Positions 3,802-62,918 of a stretch of 62,918 bases of DNA are shown here, one piece after another. The stretch is from Clostridia bacterium (lineage in GTDB: Bacteria > Bacillota > Clostridia > Christensenellales > Aristaeellaceae). A model generated the notes under the pieces. The model did no database searches, was not told where the DNA came from, and saw only the letters and a list, made by a program, of their open reading frames with translations. The stretch covers positions 1 through 62,918 of the forward strand of contig JAFQIB010000086.1 of the NCBI GenBank assembly GCA_017397765.1, read 5' to 3'. Each line of letters begins with the position of its first letter. The stretch's first letter is position 1. Made by a program: the position numbers and the translations under genes.

Positions 3802-5568
3802 ATGGCGGCATACATTTTCAAGATTATTTCCCTGTTGGGCGGCCTGGCGCTGTTCCTGTTCGGTATGGATATCATGGGCAAGGCGCTGGAGCGTCAGGCG
3901 GGCGGCAAGCTGCAGACGATCCTGGCCAAAATGAGCGGCAAGGTCTGGAAGGGCTTCCTGCTGGGCATGGCCGTAACGGCGGTGATCCAGTCCTCCTCGG
4001 CTACCACGGTCATGGTGGTGGGCTTCGTCAACTCCGGCATCATGACGCTGCAGCAGGCCGTGGGCGTCATCATGGGCTCCAACGTGGGCACCACGGTGAC
4101 GGCGTGGATCCTGTCCCTGTCCGGCCTGGAGGGCGACAGCTTCCTCATCCAGCTGTTCAAGCCCTCCACCCTCGCGCCGCTGATCGGCGTGATCGGCATC
4201 ATCCTTTACATGGGCAAGTCCGAAAAGAAAAAGGGCGTCGGCACCATCATGCTGGGCTTCATGGCCCTGATGACCGGCATGGATCTGATGAGCAAGGCAA
4301 TGTCCTTCCTGAAAACCGAGTCCTGGTTTGCCGACCTGATGATCTCCTTCACCAACCCGCTGGTGGGCATCCTCTTCGGCGCGGTGCTGACGGCCGTCAT
4401 CCAGTCCTCCTCCGCCTCCGTGGGCATTCTGCAGGGCCTGTGCGTGACGGGCGCTGTCACCTACGGCGCGGCCATCCCGATCATCCTGGGTCAGAACATC
4501 GGCACCTGCGTCACCGCCATGATGGGCGCCATCGGCGCGAACCGCAACGCCCGCCGCACGGCCATCGTGCATCTGCTGTTCAATGTGGTGGGTGTGGCGC
4601 TGTTCGTGGTCGTGTTCTACGGTCTGGGGCTGTTCATCAACTGGGCATTCCTGCCCCTGCCGGTCAGCGCCTGGAACATTTCCGTGATCCACACCAGCTT
4701 CAATCTGGCTGCCACGGCAGTGCTGCTGCCCATGAACAAGCTGCTGGTCAAGATGGCCTACGCCATCATCCCCCGGGAAAACACGCCCCAGAAGCAGGAG
4801 CTGCTGGATGAGCGTCTGCTGGCCACCCCTGCCGTTGCCGTGCAGCGAGCCCAGGAGATCGCCGCCGTGATGGCAGCCGACGCCGCCAAGGCCATGCGCC
4901 TTGCCATCGGTCTGACAAAGAAGTTCGATCCGGCTGCGATGGAGGAAGTCAGGGCGCTGGAAGACCGCACCGACCGCTACGAGGATGCGCTGGGCACCTA
5001 CCTCGTCCAGCTGTCCGCGCTGAACCTGTCCATGCATGACAACCGAATCCTCAACACCCTCCTCTACACCATCTCCGACATTGAACGCATGGGCGATCAC
5101 GCCCTGGCCGTTACCAAAGCCGCGCTGGAGATTGAAGAAAAGCAGATCAACTTCTCCCAGCAGGCCAAGGGGGAGCTGGCGGTGCTGGAGCGCGCCGTGC
5201 TGGATGTTGTGGACCGCACCGTATCCGCCTACACCACCTTCGACATGGAACAGGCCATTCAGATCGAGCCCCGGGAGCAGGTGGTGGACGCCCTTGTCCG
5301 CGAGGTGAAGTCCCGCCATGTGCGCCGCCTGCGCGACGGGCTTTGCACGGTGGAATACGGCTTCGTGCTGGAGGATCTGCTGACCGCCTGCGAGCGCACC
5401 GCTGACCACTGCTCCAATGTGGCGGTAGAAATGCTGCAGGTCTCCGAGGGCAAGCTGGAGGCCCACGAGTACCTGAACGCCCTCAAAGCCGGCGAGCTGC
5501 ACGAGAGCGCTGCCTTCGCGGAGCAGTTTGCAAAGTACAAGGCGCAGTATGCGTTCCCGGAGGAATAA
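3802..5568 (+). CDS. Na+/phosphate cotransporter family protein with C-terminal PhoU-like domain
   Basis: This 588-residue protein imports phosphate with sodium. It has the two inverted transporter repeats marked by AVIQSSSATTVMVVG (about residue 65) and AVIQSSSASVGILQG (about residue 195), with GSNVGTT and GQNIGTC after them, then a helical PhoU-like domain from about residue 350 to the end. The start at 3802 follows an AAAGGAGAG ribosome site; earlier in-frame ATGs lack one. It is divergent from pstS and shares a phosphate-type control region with it. A terminator follows. Confidence 0.93.
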   Translation: MAAYIFKIISLLGGLALFLFGMDIMGKALERQAGGKLQTILAKMSGKVWKGFLLGMAVTAVIQSSSATTVMVVGFVNSGIMTLQQAVGVIMGSNVGTTVTAWILSLSGLEGDSFLIQLFKPSTLAPLIGVIGIILYMGKSEKKKGVGTIMLGFMALMTGMDLMSKAMSFLKTESWFADLMISFTNPLVGILFGAVLTAVIQSSSASVGILQGLCVTGAVTYGAAIPIILGQNIGTCVTAMMGAIGANRNARRTAIVHLLFNVVGVALFVVVFYGLGLFINWAFLPLPVSAWNISVIHTSFNLAATAVLLPMNKLLVKMAYAIIPRENTPQKQELLDERLLATPAVAVQRAQEIAAVMAADAAKAMRLAIGLTKKFDPAAMEEVRALEDRTDRYEDALGTYLVQLSALNLSMHDNRILNTLLYTISDIERMGDHALAVTKAALEIEEKQINFSQQAKGELAVLERAVLDVVDRTVSAYTTFDMEQAIQIEPREQVVDALVREVKSRHVRRLRDGLCTVEYGFVLEDLLTACERTADHCSNVAVEMLQVSEGKLEAHEYLNALKAGELHESAAFAEQFAKYKAQYAFPEE

Positions 5569-7214
5569 ACATCAGCATATGCAAAACCCAGGGCTGCACA
5601 GCGCGCGGCAGTCCTGGGTTTGTTTATTGCAAAGATGCAGGAGCATAAGCTCACTTTATCGAGGAAATAAAGAAATCCGAACCCGTTTCCAACCGGAATC
5701 AGGTTCGGATTTCTCCTGTGAAGTGGAGCATTTGCGTTCAAATCCGAACCACTGCTCTCCGATTCGTTATCCAACGATTCAGCAAGGTCAACAAAGGAAA
5801 CCTGTTTGCCGCCTTTGATGTTGTAGAAGATGATGATGCGATCATCGTACAGGTAAATGCAGTTGATAAAGGTGTCGATGATGTTGCGGCGGAACTCAGG
5901 ATCAAAGAGGTCGCCGGTGCAGAAGCGACGGAGCCATGCCCGCACTTCTTCTTCGGTGAAACGAATCTCACTGGCGATCCGCAGCTTGACCAGCTCATTT
6001 TCCATGGACGCTTTCTGCGTTTCCAGGGTTTCCATCTTCTCATAGATGCGCTTATGGGCTACCTTCGGAGCATCTACCAGGGCATCGACCAGCTTATCCA
6101 GCTCCCGCTCGTACTGCTTGATGGCCTTTTCGTATTCCTCTACCCTGCTGCCTGCAAATTCCTTGTCGTATTCCGCGACGACGGCCTTTGCAATATCCCG
6201 CATACGGGCCGGAGTGAGGACATATTGCAAGGTCTGTTCCACAACATACCATTCGATGAAGTCCTTCTTCTCGTTCTTCTTCCGGCAGGAGTGCTTCTTC
6301 TTCCGGGCGGCGCAGGAGTAATAATAATAATTGTCACCATTACGGCTCCTGCCGCTCTCGCCGATCATGTGGGAGCCGCAGTGACCACAGAACGCTTTGC
6401 CTTGCAGCAGATACTCAACCTTTGCTTTGTTGGCTGCCGGGGCGTGGGCATTGGCCTTGACGATGATCTGTACCTTGTTGAAGGTGTCCTCGTCTATCAA
6501 GGCTTCGGCAACGCCGGGAACCAATTCGCCCTTGTACATGAAATTGCCGATATAGACGGGATTTGTCAGGGCGCGGGAGAAGGTGGTGTAGGTCAGCTCA
6601 CCGCCGCGAGAGCTGCGGACGCCGCGACGTTTCAGCTCGTCGATGATCTCCTTCGTGGGGACACCCTGGGCGTACTGCTCAAATACATAGCGAATGATCG
6701 GCGCGGTCTTTTCGTCCGCCACCAGTTTTCCATCCACTGCCTTGTAGCCATACGGGATAGGCCCGCCACACCAACGGCCCTTTGCGATGGTTTCACGCTG
6801 GCCGCGAAGGATCTTTTTCTTGAGATCGAGGGAATAATACTCGGCGGACGCTTCAAGGAGGGCTTCCAGGAGAATTGATTCATCCCCTTCTCCGACGTTC
6901 TCCATGGCAGATATGACGCGGATGCCGTATTGCTTGAGCTTGTGCTTGTAGAGGGCTGAATCGTAACGATTGCGGGCAAAGCGATCCAGTTTCCAGACGA
7001 TAATCCGCTCAAATTGCTTTTTCTGAGCATCGGCGATCATGCGCTGGAAGTCCGGGCGGTCATCGGTCATGCCGGATATGGCACGGTCGATGTATTCCCC
7101 GACGATGTTTATATCATAGCGCTTGGCATACTCGTAGCAGTCCCGGAGCTGACCTTCGATGGACTGCTCCCGCTGACTGTGCGACGAGAAACGGGCGTAG
7201 ATTACAGCGTTCAA
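5259..7214 (-). CDS. Large serine recombinase, prophage integrase; 3' end replaced by host DNA
   Basis: The protein inserts and excises the prophage. The resolvase domain starts YARFSS with the nucleophile Ser10 in the YxRxS motif, followed by a recombinase domain (about 150-260), a zinc ribbon (CGHCGSHMIG...SCAARKKKHSC, about 300-335) and a coiled coil (about 370-440). The TTG start at 7214 has an AAAGGA site. Residue 497 lies at the attL core; the 154 residues after it (5258-5723) are read antisense through host DNA and the cotransporter gene and are foreign. In the excised circle the frame instead continues 27 codons to a stop (see 61029-61112), giving 524 residues, the normal length. Confidence 0.93.
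   Translation of the reverse strand: MNAVIYARFSSHSQREQSIEGQLRDCYEYAKRYDINIVGEYIDRAISGMTDDRPDFQRMIADAQKKQFERIIVWKLDRFARNRYDSALYKHKLKQYGIRVISAMENVGEGDESILLEALLEASAEYYSLDLKKKILRGQRETIAKGRWCGGPIPYGYKAVDGKLVADEKTAPIIRYVFEQYAQGVPTKEIIDELKRRGVRSSRGGELTYTTFSRALTNPVYIGNFMYKGELVPGVAEALIDEDTFNKVQIIVKANAHAPAANKAKVEYLLQGKAFCGHCGSHMIGESGRSRNGDNYYYYSCAARKKKHSCRKKNEKKDFIEWYVVEQTLQYVLTPARMRDIAKAVVAEYDKEFAGSRVEEYEKAIKQYERELDKLVDALVDAPKVAHKRIYEKMETLETQKASMENELVKLRIASEIRFTEEEVRAWLRRFCTGDLFDPEFRRNIIDTFINCIYLYDDRIIIFYNIKGGKQVSFVDLAESLDNESESSGSDLNANAPLHRRNPNLIPVGNGFGFLYFLDKVSLCSCIFAINKPRTAARCAALGFAYADVYSSGNAYCALYFANCSAKAALSCSSPALRAFRYSWASSLPSETCSISTATLEQWSAVRSQAVSRSSSTKPYSTVQSPSRRRRTWRDFTSRTRASTTCSRGSI
5584..5628 (+). 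terminator. Intrinsic terminator after the Na+/Pi cotransporter
   Basis: AAACCCAGG (5584-5592) pairs with CCTGGGTTT (5613-5621), with an inner CTGC/GCAG, followed by GTTTATT. Confidence 0.8.
5661..5713 (-). terminator. Leftward terminator, originally that of tRNA-Ala
   Basis: On the leftward strand GAAATCCGAACC (5713-5702) pairs with GGTTCGGATTTC (5683-5672) and is followed by TTTATTT. It lies in host DNA directly left of attL. Before integration the leftward tRNA-Ala now at 61110-61189 abutted it, so it was probably that tRNA's terminator. Confidence 0.7.
5702..5750. other. attL, left prophage-host junction
   Basis: The core GTGGAGCAT (5723-5731) recurs at 61112-61120. On the phage side the arm AAATCCGAACC (5740-5750) is present; on the host side GGTTCGGATTT (5702-5712) lies at a nearly equal distance. 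The crossover dinucleotide is most likely GG at 5725-5726, the centre of symmetry of the reconstructed attP. The leftward integrase frame runs across it. Confidence 0.82.
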
Positions 7215-20933: not shown

Positions 20934-21188
20934 ATGGCAGACACCATAAAGACCAGTACCGACGTGCAGTTTGATGTACTGTACGCTGATGGGACGAAAT
21001 ACCACGCCGAGGAGGGCGTGTTGTTTGAGGCCAAGGGCCAAGATATGGTTTTTCACCTGGGAACAAGCAGGCCGGAAGTGCTTTTCGCGGTGGCGGAGGC
21101 TCTGACCGAAGTGATTGTAGATATGGGGCTGGGCGAAGCATTCAAGCGCTATATCGAAAACGGAAGGGAGGGCCAGGGCCGTGAATGA
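20934..21188 (+). CDS. Small phage protein, unknown
   Basis: 84 residues, beta-rich N-terminus and helical C-terminus (FAVAEALTEVIVDMGLGEAF), GGAG 8 bp before ATG. It overlaps the methyltransferase by 8 bp. Confidence 0.55.
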   Translation: MADTIKTSTDVQFDVLYADGTKYHAEEGVLFEAKGQDMVFHLGTSRPEVLFAVAEALTEVIVDMGLGEAFKRYIENGREGQGRE

Positions 21189-22842
21189 GATCGTCGTAGA
21201 TAACTTCGCCGGTGGCGGCGGCGCTTCCACCGGCATTGAGATTGCCATAGGCCGCAGCGTGGATATTGCCATCAACCACGATCCGGCAGCCATCGCCATG
21301 CACCGCGCAAACCACCCGACGACGGAGCATTACACCGAGGACGTGTGGAAGGTTGACCCGGTGGAGGCTTGCGCCGGTCGCCCGGTCGCTCTCGCCTGGT
21401 TCTCGCCGGACTGCAAGCATCACTCCAAGGCCAAGGGTGGAAAGCCGGTCAGCAAGAAGATTCGCGGCCTCGCGTGGGTGGCTGTGAAGTGGGCAAAGGC
21501 CGTCAAGCCCCGCGTGATTATGCTGGAAAATGTGGAGGAGTTCCAGGACTGGGGCCGACTGGACGAGAAAAACCGGCCCGATCCGCGCTACAAGGGCGAA
21601 ACCTTCCGGCGCTTTGTGGGCCAGCTTGAGAAGCTGGGCTATCATGTGGAGTACCGGCTGCTGCGTGCCTGCGACTACGGAGCGCCGACGATCCGCAAGC
21701 GGTTTTTCCTGATTGCCCGCTGCGATGGGCAAAAGATCGTATGGCCGGAGCCGACACATGCCGCGCCAGACAGCATTGAGGTACGGATGGGCAGCAAGAA
21801 ACCGTGGGTTCCCGTTTCTGAGGTTCTGGATTTTTCCTTGCCCTGCCCGTCGATCTTCGCCAGCAGTGAGGAAATCATGGAACAGTACGGCATCCGCGCT
21901 GTGCGCCCGCTCTCTGAAAACACCATGAAGCGCATTGCGCGTGGGCTGATGAAGTTTGTAGTCAACAACCCCAAGCCCTTCATCGTTTCCATTGGGCAAA
22001 CCGGCTTTGCGGGCGACGGCAGGCAGCACAGCATTGACGAGCCTTTGCGGACGGTTGTTTCAAAGGCAGAGCATTGTGTGTGCGCCCCTGTACTGATGCG
22101 GAACAACGAGAATGCCGTGGGCAGCGATGCACGGGAACCCATCGGAACGATCACCACGGGCGGCCATCACATGCTGATTGCCCCATCCATGATCCAGTAT
22201 CATAGTGAACAGAGCGAGGACGTGCGCGGCCAGACGGTAGACAAGCCCATCATGACCGTGGACAGCAGCAACCGCTACGGGCTGGTAGAGCCTTTCCTGA
22301 TCCAGACCGGCTACGGGGAGCGCGAGGGCCAGAAGCCCCGCGTACTGGATATGGATAAGCCGCTGGGGACTGTGGTTGCACAGAGCAATAAATTCGCCAT
22401 GGCGGCAGCGTTCGTGACGCAGTTTAATAACAACTGCGACGGGCAAAGCATGGATGCCCCACTGAACACCATGACTGCCAAGAGCAACCACTTCGGCGAG
22501 GTGAATGCGTTCCTGGTGAAGTATTACGGCTCCGGCGACAATGCGGTTTCCTGTGAGCTGCCAGCGCCCACCATCACGGCCAAGGATCGAATGGGGCTGG
22601 TGACGGTACACGGCGAGGATTACAAGATCGTGGACATCGGCCTGCGGATGCTGACACCGCGAGAGCTGTTTGACGCCCAGGGATTCCCGCCGGATTACAT
22701 CATCGACGTGGACGCCGACGGCAAGCCCTATCCCAAATCCGAACAGGTGGCACGCTGCGGCAACGCCGTATGCCCGCCGATCCCGACGGCGCTTGTGCGG
22801 GCCAATCTGCCGGAGCTGTGCGAAATGAAGGAGGTGGGATAA
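21181..22842 (+). CDS. C5-cytosine DNA methyltransferase with repeated target-recognition modules
   Basis: 553 residues from GTG. Motif I FAGGGGASTGIE (9-20), catalytic motif IV SPDCKHHS (Cys78), motif VI ENVEEF (about 120), motif VIII RKRFFLIAR, motif IX/X at the C-terminus (QVARCGNAVCPP). Between residues 270 and 480 about six modules of 33-38 residues recur, each starting like DxPLxTVxxxxxxxLV. It is an orphan phage methylase with no visible nuclease, most likely protecting phage DNA against host restriction. Confidence 0.93.
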   Translation: MNEIVVDNFAGGGGASTGIEIAIGRSVDIAINHDPAAIAMHRANHPTTEHYTEDVWKVDPVEACAGRPVALAWFSPDCKHHSKAKGGKPVSKKIRGLAWVAVKWAKAVKPRVIMLENVEEFQDWGRLDEKNRPDPRYKGETFRRFVGQLEKLGYHVEYRLLRACDYGAPTIRKRFFLIARCDGQKIVWPEPTHAAPDSIEVRMGSKKPWVPVSEVLDFSLPCPSIFASSEEIMEQYGIRAVRPLSENTMKRIARGLMKFVVNNPKPFIVSIGQTGFAGDGRQHSIDEPLRTVVSKAEHCVCAPVLMRNNENAVGSDAREPIGTITTGGHHMLIAPSMIQYHSEQSEDVRGQTVDKPIMTVDSSNRYGLVEPFLIQTGYGEREGQKPRVLDMDKPLGTVVAQSNKFAMAAAFVTQFNNNCDGQSMDAPLNTMTAKSNHFGEVNAFLVKYYGSGDNAVSCELPAPTITAKDRMGLVTVHGEDYKIVDIGLRMLTPRELFDAQGFPPDYIIDVDADGKPYPKSEQVARCGNAVCPPIPTALVRANLPELCEMKEVG

Positions 22843-42265: not shown

Positions 42266-42279
42266 CGGAGGTGAGAAGA

Positions 42280-43377
42280 TTGGACAACGAGATTCATTAT
42301 CTGGCATACGACCCCGAAGAACTCTGGAAGGAAATGATCGTCGCCTACGTTGAAGCGGGCGGCGATATTCTTTATCCGGGCGACGAAAAGGAAATGCTGC
42401 TGCGCGGCGTCCAGGCCATCGTTACTCAGGTCTTTGCTGGCGTAGATGCGGCCTTGAGGATGGACACCCTGCGCTATGCTGTGGGCGAATACCTGGACAT
42501 CTACGGCGAGAAGCGCAACTGCATCCGCATTCCTGCGGAGGCTGCGACCTGTACCGTGGAAATCAAATTCCGGGCCAGCGGCACGGCGAAAACCCTTGCC
42601 GCCGGTACGGCCCTGACCGCCGACGGCGAACATCTCTATCTGCTGACCGAGGCAGTGGAGCAGACCGGCTATGAGCAGACCATCAATGCCGAGGTGATTT
42701 GTCGGGAAACCGGCGGCCTTGGCAACGGCCTGCTTGCCGGTACGCAGATGCAATTCATGGTTCCGAATCCGGCGGTTCTCAGCGTATACGCCATCCGCGA
42801 TGCAAGCGGAGGCCAGGACGAGGAGGACGACGAGGTTTACCGCGAACGCATCCGCAACTTCGGCCTTATCAACACCACCACCGGCCCGCAGACGCAGTAT
42901 GAGAGCGCCGCAATGAACGTGACCAGCGAAATTCTGGACGCGCGGGCGCTCAACCTGGGCGCTGGCGTGGTCGGCATCTATCTGCTGCTGGCAAGCGACA
43001 CCGGCGCTGCGGCCATTCTGGACAGCGTGAGCGCCGCCCTGAATGCCCAGGACGTGCGACCGCTGACCGACACGGTGGAGGTATACCGCGCCACGCAGAT
43101 GCCATACGAGCTGAAAGTGCAGTATGCACAGGAGGCGGGCAGCAACATCACGACGGCCATTGGCGAGGCGGTGGAGGAATACCAGAAGTGGCAGGATGAA
43201 GAAATCGGCAGGGCCTTTAACCCTGACAAGCTGATGGCGATGCTCTACCAGGCAGGCGCGATCCGCGTTGTATGGGGCGACGGCAGCCATTTCAACAACG
43301 GCGCTGTGCAGTATACCACCATTGCCGAAAACGCCCATTGCAAGGGCAATATCACGCTGGCGGTGATGGCCACATGA
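42280..43377 (+). CDS. Baseplate protein J
   Basis: 365 residues. TTG 42280 was chosen because ACGGAGG lies 8 bp upstream. MLLRGVQAIVTQVFAGVDAALRM, ASGTAKTLAAGTALTA, DDEVYRERIRNF and GVVGIYLLLASD are the gpJ family landmarks. It forms the wedge with gpI. Confidence 0.92.
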   Translation: MDNEIHYLAYDPEELWKEMIVAYVEAGGDILYPGDEKEMLLRGVQAIVTQVFAGVDAALRMDTLRYAVGEYLDIYGEKRNCIRIPAEAATCTVEIKFRASGTAKTLAAGTALTADGEHLYLLTEAVEQTGYEQTINAEVICRETGGLGNGLLAGTQMQFMVPNPAVLSVYAIRDASGGQDEEDDEVYRERIRNFGLINTTTGPQTQYESAAMNVTSEILDARALNLGAGVVGIYLLLASDTGAAAILDSVSAALNAQDVRPLTDTVEVYRATQMPYELKVQYAQEAGSNITTAIGEAVEEYQKWQDEEIGRAFNPDKLMAMLYQAGAIRVVWGDGSHFNNGAVQYTTIAENAHCKGNITLAVMAT

Positions 43378-44285
43378 TCGACTTTACGATTCATCAGCTT
43401 TTCCCCGACTTCATTTTGGCCGACAAGAACGGCTACGCCATGGCAAAGGCCATTGAGCGGGCCTTGCAGATCATGTGCAGCACCATTCAGACGGGCGTTG
43501 ACAATCTGCAAGACATCGACAAAATGCCCGAATGGCGCTTGGATGAAATGGCCTGGGAGCTTGGTTGTCTGTATGACCACAATGCCAATATCGAAACTAA
43601 GCGGCGCTGGATCAAGGATGCAACGCCGCTTTATTCTGCCCTCGGCACGCCGCAGGCAATCTACAACTTCCTTGAGGGCTTCTTCGACCAGGTGGAGCTT
43701 GAGGAGCATTGGCAATACCCCGGCGAACCCTTCCATTTCCGCGTGACTGTTTCCGGCGAATGGAACGACGCAAACGAAGCATGGCTGCGCAGGGCCATCG
43801 AGGCCAGCAAGAATGTGCGCAGTGTGCTTGACGACATCGCCCTTGGCAGCGGTACAACGATCATCGTTTCCGGCGAGGGCGGCGTGCTGGCGCGGTACGG
43901 CCCGCCGCTGACCGGCGATGGGCTGTATGCCGGTACATACCCGGAGGAAAGCATCATCAGCAGGATTGCGGATGATGTTTACGTTATCGCCACGCGCGAG
44001 ACAAAGGGCCATGTATTCCCCTACCCGCAGGCAGGCACGCAGCCCGAAGAAACCACCGTCGGCGGCCTTGGCGAAAGCCGGATCACCGCCGCGCCGGTGG
44101 CGGAGGGACACGTTTTCCCGTACCCGGCCACAAGCGAGGAGGCGCAGGCAGGCACGCGCCCGGAGGTAAACACCATCGGCGCGATTGCCAACACCAGCGC
44201 ACAGACTGGAACCGACGGCAAGGCTACGGCCTTTTCGTACTCGCCATGCACGGACGAGAACCTGTGCGGAAGCGATGAAATCTAA
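43374..44285 (+). CDS. Tail protein I with extended C-terminus
   Basis: 303 residues from ATG 43374, overlapping gpJ. P2 gpI core in residues 1-155 (AIERALQIMCSTIQTGVDNL, LDEMAWELGCLYDH, RWIKDATPLYSALGTPQAIYN). After residue 160 a repeat-containing extension (GHVFPYPQAGTQPEE, GHVFPYPATSEEAQAG) follows that is not in P2 gpI. Confidence 0.88.
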   Translation: MIDFTIHQLFPDFILADKNGYAMAKAIERALQIMCSTIQTGVDNLQDIDKMPEWRLDEMAWELGCLYDHNANIETKRRWIKDATPLYSALGTPQAIYNFLEGFFDQVELEEHWQYPGEPFHFRVTVSGEWNDANEAWLRRAIEASKNVRSVLDDIALGSGTTIIVSGEGGVLARYGPPLTGDGLYAGTYPEESIISRIADDVYVIATRETKGHVFPYPQAGTQPEETTVGGLGESRITAAPVAEGHVFPYPATSEEAQAGTRPEVNTIGAIANTSAQTGTDGKATAFSYSPCTDENLCGSDEI

Positions 44286-44921: not shown

Positions 44922-45428
44922 ATGAGCGATGAAATCAAGATGACCCCCGAAACCGGCATGACCGACGAGGAGATTGCCGAGCTGGAAAAGCAGCGCGAGG
45001 CCGCCAGGGAGGCCCGCCTTGCTCCCTTCAAGGCCCTGCGCCAGCGCATGGACGCCGGACTGCGCTATGCCGTAGCCAATGACGGCGTGACCGACGAGGA
45101 GTTGCTGACCATGAGCGCAGCGACGCCGGAATGGAAACCCGGCATGACCCTTGCAGTCGGCGATACCGTGATGCACGGCGGCAGCATGTTTGTCGTCATC
45201 CAGGCACACACCACGCAGGCCGGATGGGAACCCGGCACGGCTACCCAGTCCCTTTTCCGCCGCGTGCAGCAGGAGGGCAGCACCGAATGGCAGCCCGATA
45301 CCGACTACGCCACAGGTGCGGAATGCACCTACGAGGGCAGCACCTACACCTGTTTGCAGGGCCACACATCGCAGGCCGGATGGGAACCCCCGAACGTTCC
45401 TTCCCTGTGGAAACTCAAGACCGAATAA
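44922..45428 (+). CDS. Tail protein with two carbohydrate-binding (CBM5/12-like) modules
   Basis: 168 residues. After a helical N-terminus (LAPFKALRQRMDAGLRYAVA) two repeats follow, GDTVMHGGSMFVVIQAHTTQ-AGWEP and GAECTYEGSTYTCLQGHTSQ-AGWEPP, with Trp/Tyr residues in the positions used by chitin-binding CBM5/12. It probably binds host surface glycans next to the DGR-varied adhesin. Confidence 0.8.
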   Translation: MSDEIKMTPETGMTDEEIAELEKQREAAREARLAPFKALRQRMDAGLRYAVANDGVTDEELLTMSAATPEWKPGMTLAVGDTVMHGGSMFVVIQAHTTQAGWEPGTATQSLFRRVQQEGSTEWQPDTDYATGAECTYEGSTYTCLQGHTSQAGWEPPNVPSLWKLKTE

Positions 45429-45443
45429 GGAGGATAATGCAGC

Positions 45444-46664
45444 ATGAACAATTCCCCTCTGGAACAGCTTGCGCGTCAGTATGGCAACGTAGTGCAGTAT
45501 GACGCGAAAGGAAATCCGAGTATTTTCTGCAAATTCCCGAAGATGAAAAGCTCCGATCTGGACGCTTCCCTGCCGGATCACATCCACCCCGCTTTCGTCA
45601 TCAACAATGTTGAGGAGGACGCTATCCTGATCGGCAAGTACATGTCCTCCGAGCTGGAGGGCAACGGTACTCAGTATTCCCTCCCCAACATGCCCCCGCG
45701 CGTTTCCATGCACCATGACACGTTCTTGCAGAAGATGCGTGCCTTTGGCAACGGCGCATCCGGCATCACCATTGCCGACCACGGCTTTATGCTGCTGCTG
45801 GCCCACAAGAACGGGTGGGAGCCGCACGGCAATAATAACTGGGGATGCGACTACCGCGACGCTTCCCCCTGGGAGCTGGCGAAGAATTACACGGTCGGCA
45901 CGATTCGCTCTTTCCGTGGCTGGACTTACAACTGCATCAAGGCCCATACCTCCTCTGCGGAGCTGCTGCCCAGCGAAAGCCCCCTGTATTGGCAGAAGCA
46001 GAAACATGTAGGCGGCACGCCTGCGGCGGAAAGCCAGTACAACGCCGATAGCCAGTATCGCGGCTACAACACCCTGACCGGCAGCGGCCCCATTGACTGG
46101 TATCTCGGCAGCGATCCCGGCAACCTGTGTGACATCCAGGGCAATGCCTTTGAACAGGTATACGGTTTCCGTCTGGTCAACTGCGAAATCCAGATTCTCG
46201 GCGACAACAACAACGCCGCCGACGCGACCGCCGACTGTTCCGCCAACGGTGCGTGGAAAGCGATCCTGCCCAACAGGACCGACAACGGCTATACGCTGGT
46301 TGCTCCCGGCACTCCCGGCACGCTTCACTACACCTGGCAGAATAGCAAGATCACCATTGACACCGTGGAGCCTACCTTCGATGGCGAATATCGCGGCACT
46401 ACCTTCGCGTCCATGGGCGTGAACACGACCAATATTCCCTACATGCCCTCCATCATGTACGAGCTGGGCTTGGCTCCCATTCCTGGTACGACTGTTCAGG
46501 GATATTTCTATGTTCACATGACGCAGGACGAGCGCGTGGCGCGGCGCGGCGGCGGCTACCTCAGCACGTCCGGCGCGGGCATGGCTTATCTGGTTTGCTA
46601 CAGCCCGCGTTCCTACGCCGGCGCGCACTATGGCGGTCGCCCGCGCTCCCGTTTGAATCCCTGA
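45444..46664 (+). CDS. DGR target: tail adhesin with C-terminal C-type-lectin-like variable domain
   Basis: 406 residues. The N-terminal part (SSDLDASLPDHIHPAFVINN) is typical of DGR-varied tail proteins; residues 145-180 (YTVGTIRSFRGWTYNCIKAHTSS) insert a CBM5/12-like module similar to the preceding gene; the C-terminal half is lectin-like and ends in the variable repeat at residues 363-402. Ten residues (371, 373, 374, 377, 384, 386, 387, 391, 393, 395) correspond to AAY codons of the template and all ten have changed. It should lie at the tip of the tail and set receptor choice. Confidence 0.93.
   Translation: MNNSPLEQLARQYGNVVQYDAKGNPSIFCKFPKMKSSDLDASLPDHIHPAFVINNVEEDAILIGKYMSSELEGNGTQYSLPNMPPRVSMHHDTFLQKMRAFGNGASGITIADHGFMLLLAHKNGWEPHGNNNWGCDYRDASPWELAKNYTVGTIRSFRGWTYNCIKAHTSSAELLPSESPLYWQKQKHVGGTPAAESQYNADSQYRGYNTLTGSGPIDWYLGSDPGNLCDIQGNAFEQVYGFRLVNCEIQILGDNNNAADATADCSANGAWKAILPNRTDNGYTLVAPGTPGTLHYTWQNSKITIDTVEPTFDGEYRGTTFASMGVNTTNIPYMPSIMYELGLAPIPGTTVQGYFYVHMTQDERVARRGGGYLSTSGAGMAYLVCYSPRSYAGAHYGGRPRSRLNP
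46530..46651 (+). repeat. DGR variable repeat (VR)
   Basis: The 122 bp match the template repeat at 47196-47317. All 96 non-adenine template positions are identical; 15 of 26 adenines are replaced (G, T or C). The last 23 bp (GGCGGTCGCCCGCGCTCCCG region) hold no changed base and would be the IMH (initiation of mutagenic homing) end. Confidence 0.96.
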
Positions 46665-46685
46665 TCCCTGAAATCTGAACTCTGT

Positions 46686-46710
46686 GGGGGTGCGCGATAG
46701 CGCATCCCCC
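46686..46710. promoter_or_regulatory. Hairpin/cruciform with GATA loop downstream of the VR
   Basis: GGGGG-TGCGC (46686-46695), loop GATA, GCGCA-T-CCCCC (46700-46710) form a 10-bp GC-rich stem with one bulged T. It lies 34 bp past the VR. Phage DGRs such as BPP-1 need a hairpin with a GNRA/GRNA-type tetraloop just after the IMH for efficient target recognition; GATA fits GRNA. It also lies just before the avd start and could mask its translation start. Confidence 0.7.
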
Positions 46711-46721
46711 TTTCTGATGCT

Positions 46722-47135
46722 ATGAGCAATTTTAATGATGACGCCCTGCTGAATGGGCAATTTGCCCTGCAAAAGATCGACGATCTGCTGAACCGGGTGG
46801 ATAATGTGGTGAACAGATGGCCGCGCCTGTACAAAAATTCCTACGGCGAGAGGCTTTATAAGCTGCTGGCCGACATGGAAGAACTGTGCATTACTGCGGC
46901 GAAGAAGTACCACAAGAAAACCACCCTGCAAGAGCTGGACATCAAGAATGCCCAGGTGCGCATCCATATCCGCAGAATTGCCAAGACAACCTTCACGGAT
47001 AAGCGAGGCGAGAAGCGCGGCCTGATTACTCCGGGCCAGCATGAGGAATGGGTGCTTCTGAACATCGAGATCGGCAGGATCATCGGCGGATGGCTCAAGC
47101 AGCAGGCAGAGCGGAAAGAAGATGCCAAGGCATAA
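46722..47135 (+). CDS. avd: Avd, DGR accessory variability determinant
   Basis: 137 residues, basic, predicted four-helix bundle (KIDDLLNRVDNVVNRWPRLY, YKLLADMEELCITAAKKYHK, LDIKNAQVRIHIRRIAKT, WVLLNIEIGRIIGGWLKQ), in the usual place between target gene and template. Avd forms a pentameric barrel that binds the RT and the template RNA in BPP-1. The ATG has no good ribosome site: a GC-rich hairpin occupies that place. Confidence 0.9.
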   Translation: MSNFNDDALLNGQFALQKIDDLLNRVDNVVNRWPRLYKNSYGERLYKLLADMEELCITAAKKYHKKTTLQELDIKNAQVRIHIRRIAKTTFTDKRGEKRGLITPGQHEEWVLLNIEIGRIIGGWLKQQAERKEDAKA

Positions 47136-47726
47136 CGCCTTTGCATAGAGGGAATGCGCCGAGAATTGGCGGCCATTACTGCCACGGCCTTTTGTGAGCG
47201 CGTGGCGCGGCGCGGCGGCAACTACAACAACACGTCCAACGCGGGCATGGCTTATCTGAATTGCAACAACCCGCGTTCCAACGCCAACGCGAACTATGGC
47301 GGTCGCCCGCGCTCCCGATCACAGCGAGTGACCGGCACGTTACGAACGACCGGCAGCACAGAAACGGGAGGGGTGCATTTCCGTCCGGGAGGGTTTTCGT
47401 AATCGCTACGCGGGCGTGCGCGTTATAACGCGCATACATGCGTGATACGCGATAATATATCCCGGAAACAACACTCGTAACCTGCACCTATTGAGGAAAC
47501 ATGCAGATTACGAATCCCCATGAAGCGCCCGGAGGGGCGTAAGGCTATGGCTGCGTGCGGCTTATCCGATAGACGGGCTTGCCTGCCGGAAAGAAAGAGC
47601 AGCCTACGCCGAACGGGAGGTTTGCTGTCTGATGGCAGCAAAGTCGCTACGCGACCGATTTTGACAACTTCGCAGAATTTGGCAAAATCGCCATACGTCA
47701 CGCATGGTCGAAACGGAGGCGTGTCT
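47136..47726 (+). ncRNA. DGR template RNA region between avd and RT
   Basis: No credible coding frame other than accidental reading of TR. Besides TR it contains an 18-bp perfect palindrome TGCGCGTTATAACGCGCA (47417-47434) and a CGATTTTG/CAAAATCG hairpin (47656-47663, 47683-47690). In BPP-1 the RT needs RNA both upstream (avd end) and downstream of TR for priming, so this whole interval is likely functional RNA. Exact RNA ends cannot be read from sequence. Confidence 0.65.
47196..47317 (+). repeat. DGR template repeat (TR)
   Basis: 122 bp, noncoding copy of the VR with ten AAY codons in place of the variable codons. The template is transcribed, and adenines are miscopied by the RT while the cDNA is made; the product replaces the VR by mutagenic homing. 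TR lies between avd and RT, the commonest DGR layout. Confidence 0.96.
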
Positions 47727-48821
47727 TTGGAGAAGCTGCAACATCTGAAAGAACGCATCTGTTCCTTTGAGAACCTATATGCCGCATACGAGGACGCCGC
47801 GAAGGAAAAGCACTACCGCGAGGACGTGCTGGCATTCACCTTCAACCTTGAGGAGAACCTTTTCGATCTGCAAAAGGATCTGTTGGACGGCACATACACC
47901 GTCGGCCCGTACCGGGAGTTCTACGTCAAGTACCCCAAACCGCGCCTTATCATGGCGCTGGGGTTCCGGGATCGAGTGGTGCAATGGGCCATCTATCGTC
48001 AGCTCAACCCATACGCCGACAAGCGTTTTATTCAGCACAGCTACGGATGCAGGAAGAACAAAGGCACGCTCCCTGCGGCCCGCTGCCTGCTGAATTGGGT
48101 GCAGCTTATCAGCCGAAAGCCCGACACAAGGGATTGGGTGCTGATAAAGTGCGACGTATCGAAGTATTTCTACCGCGTGGATCACAAAATCGCCCTGGAT
48201 GTCTACCGGGACTACACGGACGACGAGTGGTTTCTGCGGCTGATGTCGGTGATCCTCAATAACCCGGACGTTCCCTTTGGATTGCCGCCGGGAGCCAGCG
48301 CGAACGACTGCCCGAAGGAGAAGCGGCTGTATGATGTGGGTATGCCGATTGGCAACCTGACCAGCCAGGAAACGGCAAACATCTATCTGAACCGGCTTGA
48401 CCAGTATTGCAAGCACATACTCGGCCTGCATTACTATGTTCGGTATATGGATGATTTCTGCATCCTGGTCAAAGGACGAGAAGAAGCACGACGGATCATG
48501 GCGCAGATTGATGTCTTTCTCAGGGACGAGCTGCACCTTGATCTTAGCCCAAAGAGCCAGATTGTCCCCGCTACACAGGGATGCGAATTTGTGGGTTATC
48601 GCGTAACGCCTCATGGACTGAGGCTGCGCAAGAAAACCATCCGCCATATCAAGAGCTGCCTCAAGCATATTTCGGAGCTTTACGCGGCCAACGCCATCAG
48701 CTATGACAGCGCAATGCAATCCTTGCAAAGCTACATGGGCATGACGGTCAACTGCAATGCCCATAGCGTGCGGCTGTGGATCGAGCGGAATATAGCTTTT
48801 CAGCGAAAGGAGGCGGCATAA
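47727..48821 (+). CDS. DGR reverse transcriptase
   Basis: 364 residues from TTG 47727, 7 bp after GGAGG; longer in-frame ATG starts lie inside the structured RNA. RT motifs: KYPKPRLIMALGFRDRVVQW, KCDVSKYFYRVDH, catalytic YYVRYMDDFCILV (YMDD) and CEFVGYRV. The motif 4 sequence IGNLTSQ matches the DGR hallmark [I/V/L]GxxxSQ, whereas retrons and group II introns have QGxxxSP. It makes adenine-mutagenised cDNA from the template RNA. Confidence 0.95.
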   Translation: MEKLQHLKERICSFENLYAAYEDAAKEKHYREDVLAFTFNLEENLFDLQKDLLDGTYTVGPYREFYVKYPKPRLIMALGFRDRVVQWAIYRQLNPYADKRFIQHSYGCRKNKGTLPAARCLLNWVQLISRKPDTRDWVLIKCDVSKYFYRVDHKIALDVYRDYTDDEWFLRLMSVILNNPDVPFGLPPGASANDCPKEKRLYDVGMPIGNLTSQETANIYLNRLDQYCKHILGLHYYVRYMDDFCILVKGREEARRIMAQIDVFLRDELHLDLSPKSQIVPATQGCEFVGYRVTPHGLRLRKKTIRHIKSCLKHISELYAANAISYDSAMQSLQSYMGMTVNCNAHSVRLWIERNIAFQRKEAA

Positions 48822-52170: not shown

Positions 52171-52764
52171 ATGAAAGCGGTGCAGCCGATCCGGGACATG
52201 GAGCTGCTTTATAAGTGCCTCGATATAGCCCATGAACACGACAGGAAGCGCAAAACCGGCGAAGTGAGCTGGGAACTGCTGCTGGTCGTCGGTTTCAACA
52301 CATCCCTGCGCATATCAGATATTCGCCGCTTCCGGGTGCGGGACTTGCGCGGGCAGGATTATGCCGAGATCAAGGCACAAAAGACCGGCAAAGAGGCAAA
52401 AATCCTTATCAACCCGCACGCCAGGAGGGATATAAACCGCCTGCTGGCAGGCCGCAGCGGCGATGAATACATCCTCCAAAGCAAGCAGCGCGGGCCGGAT
52501 CACAAACCGCGCCCCATCACGCGCCAGCGGGCCTATCAGATCATCAACGAGATTGCCCGCAAGGCCGGTATCAAGGATCATATCGGCTGCCATACGCTGC
52601 GCAAGACCTTCGGCTATCACTATTACAAGATGACGCAGGATGTGGTGAGCCTGCAAAGGATTCTGTGCCATTCCTCCCGCCGGGAAACGCTGATCTATAT
52701 TGGCGTTATCCAGGAGGAGATCGACGAGAGCCTTATGAAATTCAACCTGACGAGGAGGCGGTGA
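52171..52764 (+). CDS. Small tyrosine recombinase (catalytic domain only)
   Basis: 197 residues. NTSLRISDI holds the first Arg, AQKTGKEAK the Lys, CHTLRKTFGYH the HxxR pair, then CHSSRRETLIYIG with His and the nucleophile Tyr. The usual N-terminal arm- and core-binding domains are missing. Since the serine recombinase is the integrase, this one may invert or resolve DNA or act in late-gene control; unproven. Confidence 0.85.
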   Translation: MKAVQPIRDMELLYKCLDIAHEHDRKRKTGEVSWELLLVVGFNTSLRISDIRRFRVRDLRGQDYAEIKAQKTGKEAKILINPHARRDINRLLAGRSGDEYILQSKQRGPDHKPRPITRQRAYQIINEIARKAGIKDHIGCHTLRKTFGYHYYKMTQDVVSLQRILCHSSRRETLIYIGVIQEEIDESLMKFNLTRRR

Positions 52765-58191: not shown

Positions 58192-59073
58192 TTATTCGGC
58201 GGTGTTCAGAATCAGCTTGACGGCCTTTTCTGCACGGGCGGCGGCGCTGACGATCATTCGCTTGTCGTTCTTGAGCGCCTTGAGCCAGGAGCGGATATAG
58301 GCGGCGGAGTTTTTGAAGGTGCCTGCGGTTTCGATGCCCAGCACATTCAAGATGGACGCCGCGCCGATCTCGGCGACAAGCTCCTCTTTGCTGTATTCTT
58401 CGCTGCCGAAATGGGCGGCGATTGCATCCTTGGGCAGCCGGTCAAGGCGCTTGGCGTGGCCGGTGGAGTGGGTCGCTTCGTGGAACAGGGTCGAATAGTA
58501 TTCGGCGGTGTCGGGGAACTGCTCCATCAGCGGCAGCCGGATCAAGTCCATGGACGGGCTGTAATACGCTTTATCCTGTCGAACGTTTTCAAAGCGTACA
58601 CCAGAGCGGGAAACGTAGTCGGCAAAGGTTTCTTCGGCGTACTGGATCGGGTCGGCGTGCTTGGTGGTTTCGGCGGTGTACTTGGGCTTGATCCCTTCGC
58701 AATCGTCGATGTGGAACACGTTGAAGTAGCGCAGCACCGGCAGGCCCTCCATGACGGGCTTCCCTTCGGTATCGGTGACGGTCTGGCCGTCGGCGTTCTT
58801 CTTCTCGCGGGGGTACACCTTCCAGAAAACAACCATCTTGGCCTTCGCGCCCTTCTTGACGCTGCCGCCCTCCTTCTTGACCTGGTTCCAGGTCAAATAT
58901 TCTCCGGGCGTTCCCAGGAGCATCTGGTTCAGCAGCGAATACGGGCGGCCCGTTTCACGGGAGATCGCGCCGGTGGTCGTGCCTGTCCAGGGCTTGTGCC
59001 ACGGGATGATCCCGTTTTCCAGTTCGGCGATGATGCGATCAGTGATAGCGGCGTAGATGTCAAAGTTTGCCAT
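58192..59073 (-). CDS. ardC: ArdC-family antirestriction protein
   Basis: 293 residues from ATG 59073 (GGAGG). N-terminal ssDNA-binding ArdC domain (YAAITDRIIAELENGIIPWH-KPW, GRPYSLLNQMLL, YLTWNQVKKEGG) and C-terminal zincin-like metallopeptidase with HEATHSTGH and the distal Glu in EELVAEIGA. ArdC shields incoming DNA from type I restriction. Promoter at 59135-59163 has operators for a regulator. Confidence 0.9.
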   Translation of the reverse strand: MANFDIYAAITDRIIAELENGIIPWHKPWTGTTTGAISRETGRPYSLLNQMLLGTPGEYLTWNQVKKEGGSVKKGAKAKMVVFWKVYPREKKNADGQTVTDTEGKPVMEGLPVLRYFNVFHIDDCEGIKPKYTAETTKHADPIQYAEETFADYVSRSGVRFENVRQDKAYYSPSMDLIRLPLMEQFPDTAEYYSTLFHEATHSTGHAKRLDRLPKDAIAAHFGSEEYSKEELVAEIGAASILNVLGIETAGTFKNSAAYIRSWLKALKNDKRMIVSAAARAEKAVKLILNTAE

Positions 59074-59107
59074 GGTGTTATCCTCCTTGCGTTTGCGGTC
59101 GTTGTTT

Positions 59108-59163
59108 ACACGGTGTTGTGTGGTGTTGGCTTGTATTTTACACGGTGTTGTGTAGCTTGTCAA
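59108..59163 (-). promoter_or_regulatory. ardC promoter with two ACACAACACCGTGT operators
   Basis: TTGACA (59163-59158), 17-bp spacer, TAAAAT (59140-59135). The operator fills the spacer (59153-59140) and is repeated 32 bp downstream (59121-59108). Confidence 0.8.
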
Positions 59164-61209: not shown

Positions 61210-62869
61210 ATCCAGCAAAAGCGCTGTATGACCGCAAAATACCATCCTCGGCCTCAACAATCTCCATTTCAGGAGCGCTCTCCATTGCCTTCTCGCGGAA
61301 GTCGTCCTCCGTGATGAAAAAGGTCATGGTAATGTGGTAATTGCGGTCAACGGTGATCTTCTCGATGATCCTTGCGAGGATCATCTTTTTTGTATCGTTG
61401 TTTGCTGAACTGAACTCCTCTGCCCAGTCCACAATCTGACGGTACTGCTCTGCAAGGTAGTTAATGCGCTCGGCTTCCTTCTCGCGGTCATTCTGATACT
61501 GCTCGATCTTCTTCTGCGCAGCGGCAATGGCTGCTTCGTTTTCATCCAGCAGGGACTTGAGCATCTGAGGATCGAACAGACTCTCGCCGGACAGCGACTT
61601 GACCACTTCCTGCTTCAGGTTGGTCTGCTGCTTTTCCAGCTTGATCAGTTCAGTCTGAGCCTGCTTGATCAGCGTCCCCAGTTTGCTGCGAAGCTGAATC
61701 TTCACCTGCTCGCGCCACACCGCGTCCACCGTACGGGAGATGTTCTGGAAGTAATGCTGGACAACCTCCAGCACTGCATCCTCAATCTTTTTCGCAGAGT
61801 AGACAGTCTGACCATCGCACATCTTCGCCTTGATGGAGCCGTTGTAGCAGCGATAGATCGGACGATGGTAGGCGTGCGTCGCCAGTTGCTTGGTGCAGTA
61901 GCTGCCGACCAGACGATGTCCGCAATGGGCGCAGTACAGGATGCCGCTGAGTAGCGTCGCGCCGTAGACACTGACCTTGGTGGTCGCGTCCTCCGGCAGC
62001 GCTTCATTCTCCGCGTTGCGCTGCTCCATGTACTTCCGGGGAATCCGGCGCGTCAGGGCATAATCTGCAAAGCGCTGTGTTTCATCAGAAACTAATCGCA
62101 GATACTCCTGCGGCTCGGACAGCGTGTCGTTCATGTGCAGCCGACCGATGTAGATCGGATTGCGGACCATCGAGCGGATCGTCTGCCCCGTCCAGGTTTT
62201 GCCCAGATCGGGATACTTGTCATTCAGATAATTCGCAGCCCGCTGGATACCATAACCCTGATGGCAGATCAGATCAAAGACCTCCTGCACGATCGGGCCG
62301 GTGATTTCGTCAATCTCCAGATCATACAGCGGACGGTTCTTCTTGCCGATGCGCCCCTTGTGCACCAGCTTGTAACCAAAGGGAGCAACGCCGCCGCGCC
62401 AGATGCCATCAGCGGTCATCTGCGTATGGGCAGCTTTGACGCGCATGGATGTCTTCTCGGACTCGCCGCCAGCCTGCCAGTAGCGCATGAAATTCATCAG
62501 CTTGTCCACACGGTTATCAAGGCGCTGCTGACCCTCGCGGGTGCTCCACACCTCGATGCCGTGCTCGATAAACCACTGCACCAAGAAGGGCGTCTCGTCC
62601 TCCCTGCGGCCCAGACGATCAAACATAAACACCAGCAGGATATCAAACTTCTTCTTTTCCGCCAACGCGCGGATCTCCTGGATCGCGTCGCGCTTGGAGA
62701 CAGAAACCTTATAACCCGAAACGCCCTTCTCCATGAACTCAGCGGTGAACTGCCAGTCCTTCTGACGTTCGATGAAGTCCATGCATTCCCGGCGCTGCAT
62801 CGGGATATCGTCCTGCTTGTCAACTTGTCCTTTAGTAGATACTCTGTACAGAGTTACAACCCGCTTCAT
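61208..62869 (-). CDS. Second large serine recombinase, of a neighbouring mobile element
   Basis: 553 residues from ATG 62869 (AAGGAG). VTLYRVSTKGQ places the nucleophile at Ser11; VFMFDRLGRREDETPF is the resolvase core; recombinase domain about 160-290 (GIQRAANYLNDKYPD, IRSMVRNPIYIGRLHMNDTL); zinc ribbon LYCAHCGHRLVG; coiled coil about 400-470. It is only distantly like the integrase at 5259-7214. Its 3' end lies 20 bp from the tRNA, so it probably belongs to another element inserted at the same locus and extending right of the window. Confidence 0.92.
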   Translation of the reverse strand: MKRVVTLYRVSTKGQVDKQDDIPMQRRECMDFIERQKDWQFTAEFMEKGVSGYKVSVSKRDAIQEIRALAEKKKFDILLVFMFDRLGRREDETPFLVQWFIEHGIEVWSTREGQQRLDNRVDKLMNFMRYWQAGGESEKTSMRVKAAHTQMTADGIWRGGVAPFGYKLVHKGRIGKKNRPLYDLEIDEITGPIVQEVFDLICHQGYGIQRAANYLNDKYPDLGKTWTGQTIRSMVRNPIYIGRLHMNDTLSEPQEYLRLVSDETQRFADYALTRRIPRKYMEQRNAENEALPEDATTKVSVYGATLLSGILYCAHCGHRLVGSYCTKQLATHAYHRPIYRCYNGSIKAKMCDGQTVYSAKKIEDAVLEVVQHYFQNISRTVDAVWREQVKIQLRSKLGTLIKQAQTELIKLEKQQTNLKQEVVKSLSGESLFDPQMLKSLLDENEAAIAAAQKKIEQYQNDREKEAERINYLAEQYRQIVDWAEEFSSANNDTKKMILARIIEKITVDRNYHITMTFFITEDDFREKAMESAPEMEIVEAEDGILRSYSAFAG

Positions 62870-62918
62870 GCGTAACACTCCTTCTCTTGAGGAAGGCCGC
62901 AATCAGCATCCCTGCCAC

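What the first reader, a model, noticed from the sequence alone, without database searches (positions are those of the whole stretch)
45444..48821. Complete diversity-generating retroelement in the prophage
Seen directly: a 122-bp variable repeat (46530-46651) at the 3' end of a tail adhesin, a template repeat (47196-47317), an Avd-like protein and a reverse transcriptase with IGNLTSQ and YMDD. All 15 differences fall on the 26 template adenines; none on the other 96 positions. The ten AAY codons all changed and no stop arose. From known DGRs (BPP-1) I infer that the phage rewrites its receptor-binding tip by adenine-specific mutagenic retrohoming.
Basis: partly seen in the sequence, partly recalled or inferred. 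Interest (0 to 1): 0.9.

Follow-up and report, generated by a model that had tools for sequence, protein, structure and literature searches.

The report
Phage adhesin-diversifying retroelement in gut Clostridia
A bacterial virus integrated in a Clostridia genome carries a complete genetic device of the kind that rewrites the tip of a phage attachment protein; this is a well-known kind of device, and this is a clear new example of it.

Summary
VR 46530-46651 and TR 47196-47317 differ at 15 of 122 positions, all at the 26 TR adenines (P = 1.3e-12). The machinery is there: Avd (Pfam bAvd 1.5e-16), and an RT whose best solved relative is the BPP-1 RT (8ub7_A, 3.5e-38; group II RT 8.7e-17) and which groups with BPP-1, apart from group II introns. 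The target matches TaqVP, a C-type-lectin DGR variable protein (5vf4, 1e-46, VR included). L003, with identical TR and 98.8% identical target body, differs at 16 VR positions, all template adenines, so this lineage has been active. Caveat: a 78-bp insertion (47617-47694), absent from the relatives aligned, lies in the spacer, so activity of this copy is unproven. Verdict: an ordinary, complete phage DGR, related to that of Faecalibacterium phage Lagaffe.

The parts
45444..46664 (+). DGR target gene (406 aa tail adhesin); VR at its 3' end; central CBM_5_12-like segment aa 143-184
   Evidence: PDB profile hit to TaqVP 5vf4 E=1e-46 including VR; phrog_2889, unknown function, 1.5e-66; CBM_5_12 4.3e-05, below Pfam cut-off
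46530..46651 (+). variable repeat (VR)
   Evidence: 15 mismatches to TR, all at TR adenines
46632..46651 (+). A-free 3' end shared by VR and TR, expected position of the IMH
   Evidence: identical to TR 47298-47317; its 17-base core occurs only at these two places in the window
46686..46709 (+). target-site hairpin: 10-bp G+C-rich stem with one G-T pair, loop GATA (GRNA)
   Evidence: DNA fold z = -3.94; fits the rule in Guo 2011 (passages)
46722..47135 (+). avd, accessory variability determinant
   Evidence: Pfam bAvd 1.5e-16, PHROG 'Avd protein of DGR' 4.3e-24; NCBIfam DivGenRetAVD 63.8 bits, under its cut-off of 80
47196..47317 (+). template repeat (TR)
   Evidence: 122 of 122 identical in L003 and in G049 of another genus
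47318..47726 (+). spacer between TR and RT, presumed structured part of the DGR RNA
   Evidence: alignments A4-A7
47513..47708 (+). conserved multi-helix RNA element directly before the RT
   Evidence: in relatives 22 pairs, 15 with two-sided changes, 95% of cells paired against 25-43% in slid controls; model R1 scores 57.6 bits at 47513-47636 in the window, its 3' end forced into the insertion
47617..47694 (+). 78-bp insertion absent from the relatives aligned, in the loop of the last helix of that element; resembles in part a dispersed small repeat
47727..48821 (+). DGR reverse transcriptase (364 aa, TTG start)
   Evidence: RVT_1 4.2e-21, phrog_1423 9.8e-119, 8ub7_A 3.5e-38, tree
44922..45428 (+). 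upstream CBM_5_12 protein of the tail region (context)
   Evidence: Pfam 9.4e-28
42271..44285 (+). two baseplate genes upstream of the target (context)
   Evidence: PHROG baseplate wedge subunit 4.4e-47, baseplate protein 1.9e-37

Best explanation
A complete diversity-generating retroelement of a contractile-tailed (myovirus-like) prophage. The order is target gene - hairpin - avd - TR - spacer - RT, all on the + strand. Most likely working: the TR-spacer RNA is folded and bound by RT and Avd. cDNA is made with errors opposite template adenines. The mutated cDNA then replaces VR, guided at its 3' end by the A-free IMH and the GRNA hairpin. The template adenines allow up to about 1.8e15 protein variants with no reachable stop codon, on what is probably a C-type-lectin surface at the C-terminus of a tail adhesin. 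Shown by sequence: the parts, the adenine specificity, VR differences between near relatives confined to template adenines, the hairpin, and conserved RNA structure in relatives. Inferred from BPP-1 and other studied DGRs: RNA-primed mutagenic cDNA synthesis, retrohoming, and the role in recognising the bacterial surface.
For: Adenine-only mismatches, P = 1.25e-12. Avd and RT families; nearest solved RT chain is 8ub7_A, which is the BPP-1 RT (328 of 328 residues, 4.5e-230); RT tree. Target homologous to TaqVP over its N-terminal and VR-bearing parts. One TR and one VR in the 3.13-Mb genome, which is 88.96% complete. 72 of 80 loci encoding relatives of the RT carry an adenine-only repeat pair, TR downstream of VR in each of the 72; in every second one of these loci (40 of 80) the same scan finds an A-only pair in 36, C-only in 0, G-only in 2, T-only in 0. 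L003: body differs at 13 of 1086, VR at 16 of 122, all 16 at template adenines (Fisher, A sites against body, 1.4e-21); G049: 0 of 96 non-adenine VR positions changed against 99 of 1086 in the body (P = 1.0e-4). GRNA hairpin after VR in 46 of 79, after TR in 0 of 79, 0.09 expected in shuffles. Spacer RNA covariation. RT constrained between the window and G049: 6 synonymous, 1 nonsynonymous change.
Against: Nothing in the protein parts. Activity of this copy is not shown: the spacer RNA has a 78-bp insertion lacking in the relatives aligned, and single-sequence folding predicts that the insert can pair with native helices. The element of L003 taken alone does not fold better than shuffles either (z = -0.60), so the RNA claim rests on covariation, of which one of five measures (further pair types) is no higher than in shuffles (211 of 500). 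33 of 79 VRs have no hairpin by my rule, and 20 of 79 TRs have a hairpin with some other 4-nt loop. Avd is under NCBIfam's cut-off, and its match to the solved Avd chains is weak (4dwl 0.0051, 8ub7_B 0.033). No read data could be examined.
Confidence: 0.96

Rival explanations
1. A DGR that worked recently but is now disabled in this lysogen, because a 78-bp repeat inserted into the spacer RNA spoils the fold that recruits RT and Avd.
For: The insertion is absent from G049 and from all 11 other rows of alignment A4 and 16 other rows of A6. Parts of it (26-48 bases, 80-88%) match small repeats in 7 of 149 other genomes of the family. In the predicted fold it pairs with native parts, and model R1 does not follow the native 3' end across it.
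Against: It sits in the apical loop of the last helix; the outer stem and the CCGG hairpin remain in the predicted fold; the closing stem in the window is ACG/CGT where near relatives have GCG/CGC, that is, still paired. RT, Avd and TR are intact.
Confidence: 0.2
2. The DGR is as described but the target is not the host-receptor-binding tip; it binds carbohydrate, mucus or debris, and diversification serves attachment to the gut environment.
For: CBM_5_12-like segment in the target (4.3e-05, below Pfam cut-off) and CBM_5_12 repeats in the gene before it (9.4e-28). Some gut phage DGRs target Hoc-like decoration proteins thought to bind mucus (PMC5883640, passages).
Against: The target lies close behind two baseplate genes and matches TaqVP; [quoted passage not shown]
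Confidence: 0.15
3. The RT is a group II intron or retron RT and the repeat pair an ordinary duplication.
For: NCBIfam's best model for the RT is group II RT (118 bits), far under its cut-off of 300.
Against: Adenine-only mismatches in the window and in 72 of 80 relatives; IGNLTSQ where the six group II RTs in the same table have QGG..SP; tree; 8ub7_A best in the PDB.
Confidence: 0.005

Closest known systems
DGR of Bordetella phage BPP-1
   Same: Same parts and order: target with 3' VR, avd, TR, spacer, RT (record table) and the hairpin after VR (passages of PMC3240598); adenine-only VR/TR pair found there by the same scan; RT family.
   Different: The BPP-1 RT chain matches in two stretches, the best covering aa 5-154 of the window RT. 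Spacer here 409 nt against 144 nt between brt and TR in the BPP-1 record (2743-2886). Model R1 does not find BPP-1's spacer. The target's PDB hits (11 listed) are TaqVP and carbohydrate-binding proteins, none called Mtd.
DGR of Faecalibacterium phage FP_Lagaffe (NC_047911)
   Same: Same gene neighbourhood: baseplate J and I genes, small genes, target, avd, RT, endolysin; VR/TR pair; RT in one 68-taxon clade with the window's (support 0.933). Passages of PMC11792537 and PMC5883640 describe its DGR, with MTD-like targets.
   Different: DNA similarity is limited to 404 bases of the RT at 67%; R1 does not match Lagaffe's spacer; Lagaffe is said to use an IS30-type integrase, whereas a tyrosine recombinase and two large serine recombinases are in this window.
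TaqVP, variable protein of the Thermus aquaticus prophage DGR (PDB 5vf4)
   Same: Target is homologous, E = 1e-46, with the VR aligned at the C-terminus; C-type-lectin fold according to passages of PMC6328139.
   Different: Nearly all of the CBM_5_12-like segment (aa 143-184) falls in the stretch not aligned to TaqVP (profile positions 148-193).

Membership tests
Diversity-generating retroelement | TR/VR pair whose differences sit at TR adenines | tested here: met
   15 of 15 at adenines, P = 1.25e-12
Diversity-generating retroelement | RT of the DGR lineage | tested here: met
Diversity-generating retroelement | accessory protein Avd | tested here: met
   Pfam and PHROG models, above Pfam cut-off; under the NCBIfam cut-off
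Diversity-generating retroelement | VR at the 3' end of a target gene, in frame | tested here: met
   VR ends 13 bases before the end of the target ORF, stop included; frame offset 0
Diversity-generating retroelement | IMH and downstream hairpin with GRNA loop | tested here: met
   A-free shared 20-mer; hairpin with loop GATA against Guo 2011 passages
Diversity-generating retroelement | C-type-lectin fold of the variable protein | tested here: inconclusive
Diversity-generating retroelement | structured spacer RNA that recruits RT and Avd | tested here: inconclusive
   conserved covarying structure in relatives; protein binding cannot be tested; the window copy has an insertion
Diversity-generating retroelement | mutagenic retrohoming in the living phage | not testable with these tools
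   only indirect: VRs of near relatives differ at template adenines only
Group II intron or retron RT | grouping of the RT with those families | tested here: not met
   NCBIfam scores far under cut-offs
Prophage | phage structural genes and recombinases next to bacterial genes on one contig | tested here: met
   portal, protease, capsid, sheath, tape measure, baseplate, terminase; ABC transporter and Na/Pi cotransporter at the left end, serine recombinase at 5262-7214. Attachment sites were not mapped.

The most novel reading that the evidence does not exclude
The spacer of this lineage of phage DGRs holds a conserved multi-helix RNA element (outer stem, CCGG-closed hairpin, long arm, short hairpin) immediately before the RT gene, without a match in Rfam 15. 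It is the docking and priming core of the DGR RNA, and can take up a mobile small repeat in one apical loop without losing function.
Probability: 0.4. Interest if true: 0.45.

Novelty: new member of a known kind. Interest (0 to 1): 0.3.

Why it matters
DGRs aim very large numbers of mutations at one short stretch of one protein. Passages of PMC8144416 report more than 30,000 of them, three clades mainly in phages. This one adds a clean natural series: identical template, closely related phage, different VR, in two bacterial genera of one family by MAG binning. It also adds a covarying spacer RNA that could help to annotate the RNA part of DGRs, for which Rfam gave no match in the loci searched.

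Tried and rejected
Ordinary duplication or chance: rejected. Further VRs in the genome: none besides the known one in the 88.96%-complete assembly. The same IMH in other phage genes: an exact scan of viral contigs gave 4 stretches; three are contigs already found as DGR relatives (L003, L004/L014 and L013 contigs) and the fourth is L005. A longer target gene in L003/L013/L014, suggested by the joined tblastn range, was an artefact of the preceding gene; in L003, L004 and L013 the target is 406 aa. The 78-bp insertion as a repeat of this genome: one copy only, and no exact 23-mer in viral contigs, but partial relatives in other genomes. Rfam match for spacer or hairpin: none at gathering score; a weak ftsZ-DE hit (E 2.1) on the hairpin is far under its cut-off. 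R1 as a general DGR RNA: it finds 12 of 69 more distant loci at E <= 10, 5 of them at E <= 0.01, all 12 in the stretch before the RT, and not the BPP-1 or Lagaffe spacers. In 200 genomes of the family R1 matches in 8: the window's, five next to a related RT, one (L142) next to avd and TR without RT, one (L143, E 0.0086) next to neither, perhaps chance. Literature on the spacer RNA: library searches listed no paper on a covariation model of it, but a passage of PMC8867640 already says that the RNA after TR is predicted to have a conserved structure that interacts with the RT, and a passage of PMC12875486 that the BPP-1 spacer folds and recruits RT and Avd; the 2025 Nature paper cited there is not held and was not seen. 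An earlier count said that the hairpin is in all relatives; the count is the right statement.
Full report
Observation. The 15 differences all fall on the 26 template adenines; with 26 adenines in 122 positions the chance is 1.25e-12. Substitutions are A>G 9, A>T 4, A>C 2. All ten AAY codons differ; the six adenines outside AAY codons do not (P = 0.002). That no stop codon arose is guaranteed: none is reachable by changing any template adenine in this frame. The theoretical repertoire is 1.8e15 proteins.

Machinery. The 137-aa product at 46722 is an Avd (Pfam bAvd 1.5e-16, PHROG 'Avd protein of DGR'), though under NCBIfam's cut-off (63.8 against 80 bits) and only weakly similar to the solved Avd chains (4dwl 0.0051, 8ub7_B 0.033). 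The RT (364 aa from TTG 47727) is PHROG 1423 (9.8e-119). Its closest solved chain is 8ub7_A (3.5e-38), ahead of group II RTs (best 8.7e-17); 8ub7_A is the BPP-1 RT, matched over 328 of 328 residues by the brt gene of NC_005357. I built a tree of 116 RTs: 120 were collected by a profile search and 4 fragments dropped by me (L035, L085, L113, L124); only 2 of the 6 retron-family loci passed that search. The tree was rooted by me on the group II RTs. The window RT lies in a 99-taxon clade (support 1.0) that joins BPP-1 in a 104-taxon clade (0.921); the two retron RTs attach next (0.86), and the group II RTs are outside. The RT carries IGNLTSQ and YMDD; the six group II RTs in the same table have QGG..SP and YADD.

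Target. The 406-aa target has no Pfam domain above cut-off; a CBM_5_12 segment scores 23.9 against 26.2 bits. A profile of 13 relatives finds one solved protein over its N-terminal and VR-bearing parts: 5vf4, E = 1e-46; the other ten hits match only the CBM segment. 5vf4 is TaqVP, the C-type-lectin variable protein of the Thermus aquaticus prophage DGR (passages of PMC6328139). The gene follows two baseplate genes and a tail region with sheath and tape measure, so an adhesin or receptor-binding role is likely but inferred.

(1) A 10-bp hairpin with loop GATA begins 34 bases after VR. Passages of Guo 2011 (PMC3240598) describe such hairpins in phage DGR targets, with 7-10 bp G+C-rich stems, 4-nt GRNA loops and distances of 4-34 bp. 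With one strict rule, 46 of 79 VRs (window, 6 IMG/VR loci, 72 genome loci) have a GRNA hairpin within 90 bases, at distances of 24-53; 0 of 79 TRs have one; 0.09 are expected in mononucleotide shuffles. With any 4-nt loop the figures are 48 VRs, 20 TRs and 1.38 expected. Some of the 33 misses appear to have stems with bulges that the rule does not allow (for example L007, L009; sequences, judged by eye). The loci are not all independent; some are near copies. (2) The spacer before the RT holds a conserved RNA element. On 15 sequences (12 distinct), 22 pairs form in 95.0% of cells and 15 pairs have changes on both sides. In four of five measures no shuffle of 500 reaches the observed value; in the fifth (further pair types) 211 of 500 do. 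Slid controls pair in 25-43%. The alignment was made without the structure (MAFFT), but the structure was derived from that alignment. No Rfam match reached gathering score in the window or in 8 related loci. [quoted passage not shown] A structured spacer is therefore expected; this fold is the local version.

Relatives and activity. IMG/VR gave 16 different loci over two protein searches (10 and 7 loci, one shared); L004 and L014 lie on one contig. A closely related prophage is in G049, another genus of the same family: it aligns in pieces over window 5.7-53.6 kb, the two longest at 93.1% and 92.9%. By length and match its contig is the public MAG contig CALVVZ010000001.1. Its TR is identical (122 of 122), the RT differs by 7 bases of 1092 (6 synonymous), the target body by 99 of 1086, and the VR by 12, all at template adenines. 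Given the body's rate, no change in 96 non-adenine positions has P = 1.0e-4, as expected if VR is repeatedly overwritten from TR. For L003, L004 and L013 the same test says nothing, because their bodies differ too little (P 0.24-0.31). These three share one VR; it differs from the window's at 16 template-adenine positions while the bodies differ by 13-16 of 1086. Results against a strict rule: L006 has one non-adenine change, L004 two (where its own TR differs from near relatives), and four loci differ at the first base of the repeat; in all, 7 of 1133 non-adenine against 163 of 321 adenine positions in 12 pairs. Left out of that count: L005, L012, L013, L015, L017 and L018, for which both repeats were not in hand, L011 and L014 as near copies of L010 and L004, and the loci other than L020-L022. 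L015 and L016 VRs differ from the window's VR at 3 and 12 non-adenine positions; L016's own TR agrees with its VR at all non-adenine positions, and L015's TR is not on the stretch held. Of 80 genome loci with related RTs (the best 80 of 270), 72 have an adenine-only pair; several of the 8 without are cut by a contig end.

Caveat on this copy. The window's spacer is 409 nt against a median of 244.5 in 72 loci (range 147-827). About 60 nt are shared with L003-L005. A further 78 bp (47617-47694) are missing from G049 and from all other rows of alignments A4 (11) and A6 (16). Parts of it, 26-48 bases at 80-88% identity, match small repeats in 7 of 149 other genomes of the family. The insert lies in the loop of the last helix. 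The closing stem is still paired (ACG/CGT, where near relatives have GCG/CGC). Minimum-energy folding nevertheless lets the insert pair with native parts, and model R1 places its 3' end inside the insert. I put 0.2 on this copy being disabled.

Placement. It meets the DGR features that could be decided here; fold, RNA binding and activity stay open. The closest well-described relative by gene order is Faecalibacterium phage Lagaffe, whose DGR and two targets are in print and whose virions were detected in both Faecalibacterium and Blautia cultures (passages of PMC11792537 and PMC5883640). The cross-genus relative in G049 fits that picture, though host assignment rests on MAG binning. Phage DGRs of gut Firmicutes are a known large group (passages of PMC8144416). 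Hence a new member of a known kind.

Noticed in passing
L142 (G222:C40) 1-1800: A sister DGR with target VR, avd, TR and the start of the spacer but no RT gene found behind it; the best RT matches elsewhere in that 89%-complete MAG are distant (2.8e-10, 33%). A natural RT-less DGR.
   Followed up: partly
L010 1154-4660; L011 1749-5255: The DGR target gene is tandemly duplicated (unit 1752 bp, exact copies; in L010 both VRs checked and identical) in two viral contigs: recent duplication, homogenisation, or assembly artefact.
   Followed up: partly
47617-47694: 78-bp insertion with several predicted hairpins (z = -3.15), partly matching small repeats in other genomes of the host family (up to 6 listed copies per genome), here inside the DGR spacer.
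   Followed up: partly
L020 (G049) around VR: The 3' end of the target and the stretch up to the hairpin look, by eye, like L006, while avd and RT look like the window: the target's 3' end may have been exchanged by recombination near the hairpin.
   Followed up: no
46530-46651: Over 12 VR/TR pairs the second adenine in AAC context changed in 54 of 115, but adenines in GAG (0 of 12), CAT (0 of 6) and CAC (1 of 9) context hardly at all: selection, position or context bias of the RT.
   Followed up: no
5262-7214 (-), 52171-52764 (+), 61211-62902 (-): Two large serine recombinases and one short tyrosine recombinase in one window; which one integrates the phage was not determined.
   Followed up: no
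21181-22842: C5 cytosine methyltransferase with roughly 250 extra residues between its two conserved parts, repetitive by eye, like a multi-target phage methyltransferase (the comparison is recalled).
   Followed up: no
58195-59163 (-): Phage anti-restriction protein (phrog_7245, 1.7e-68) near the right end.
   Followed up: no
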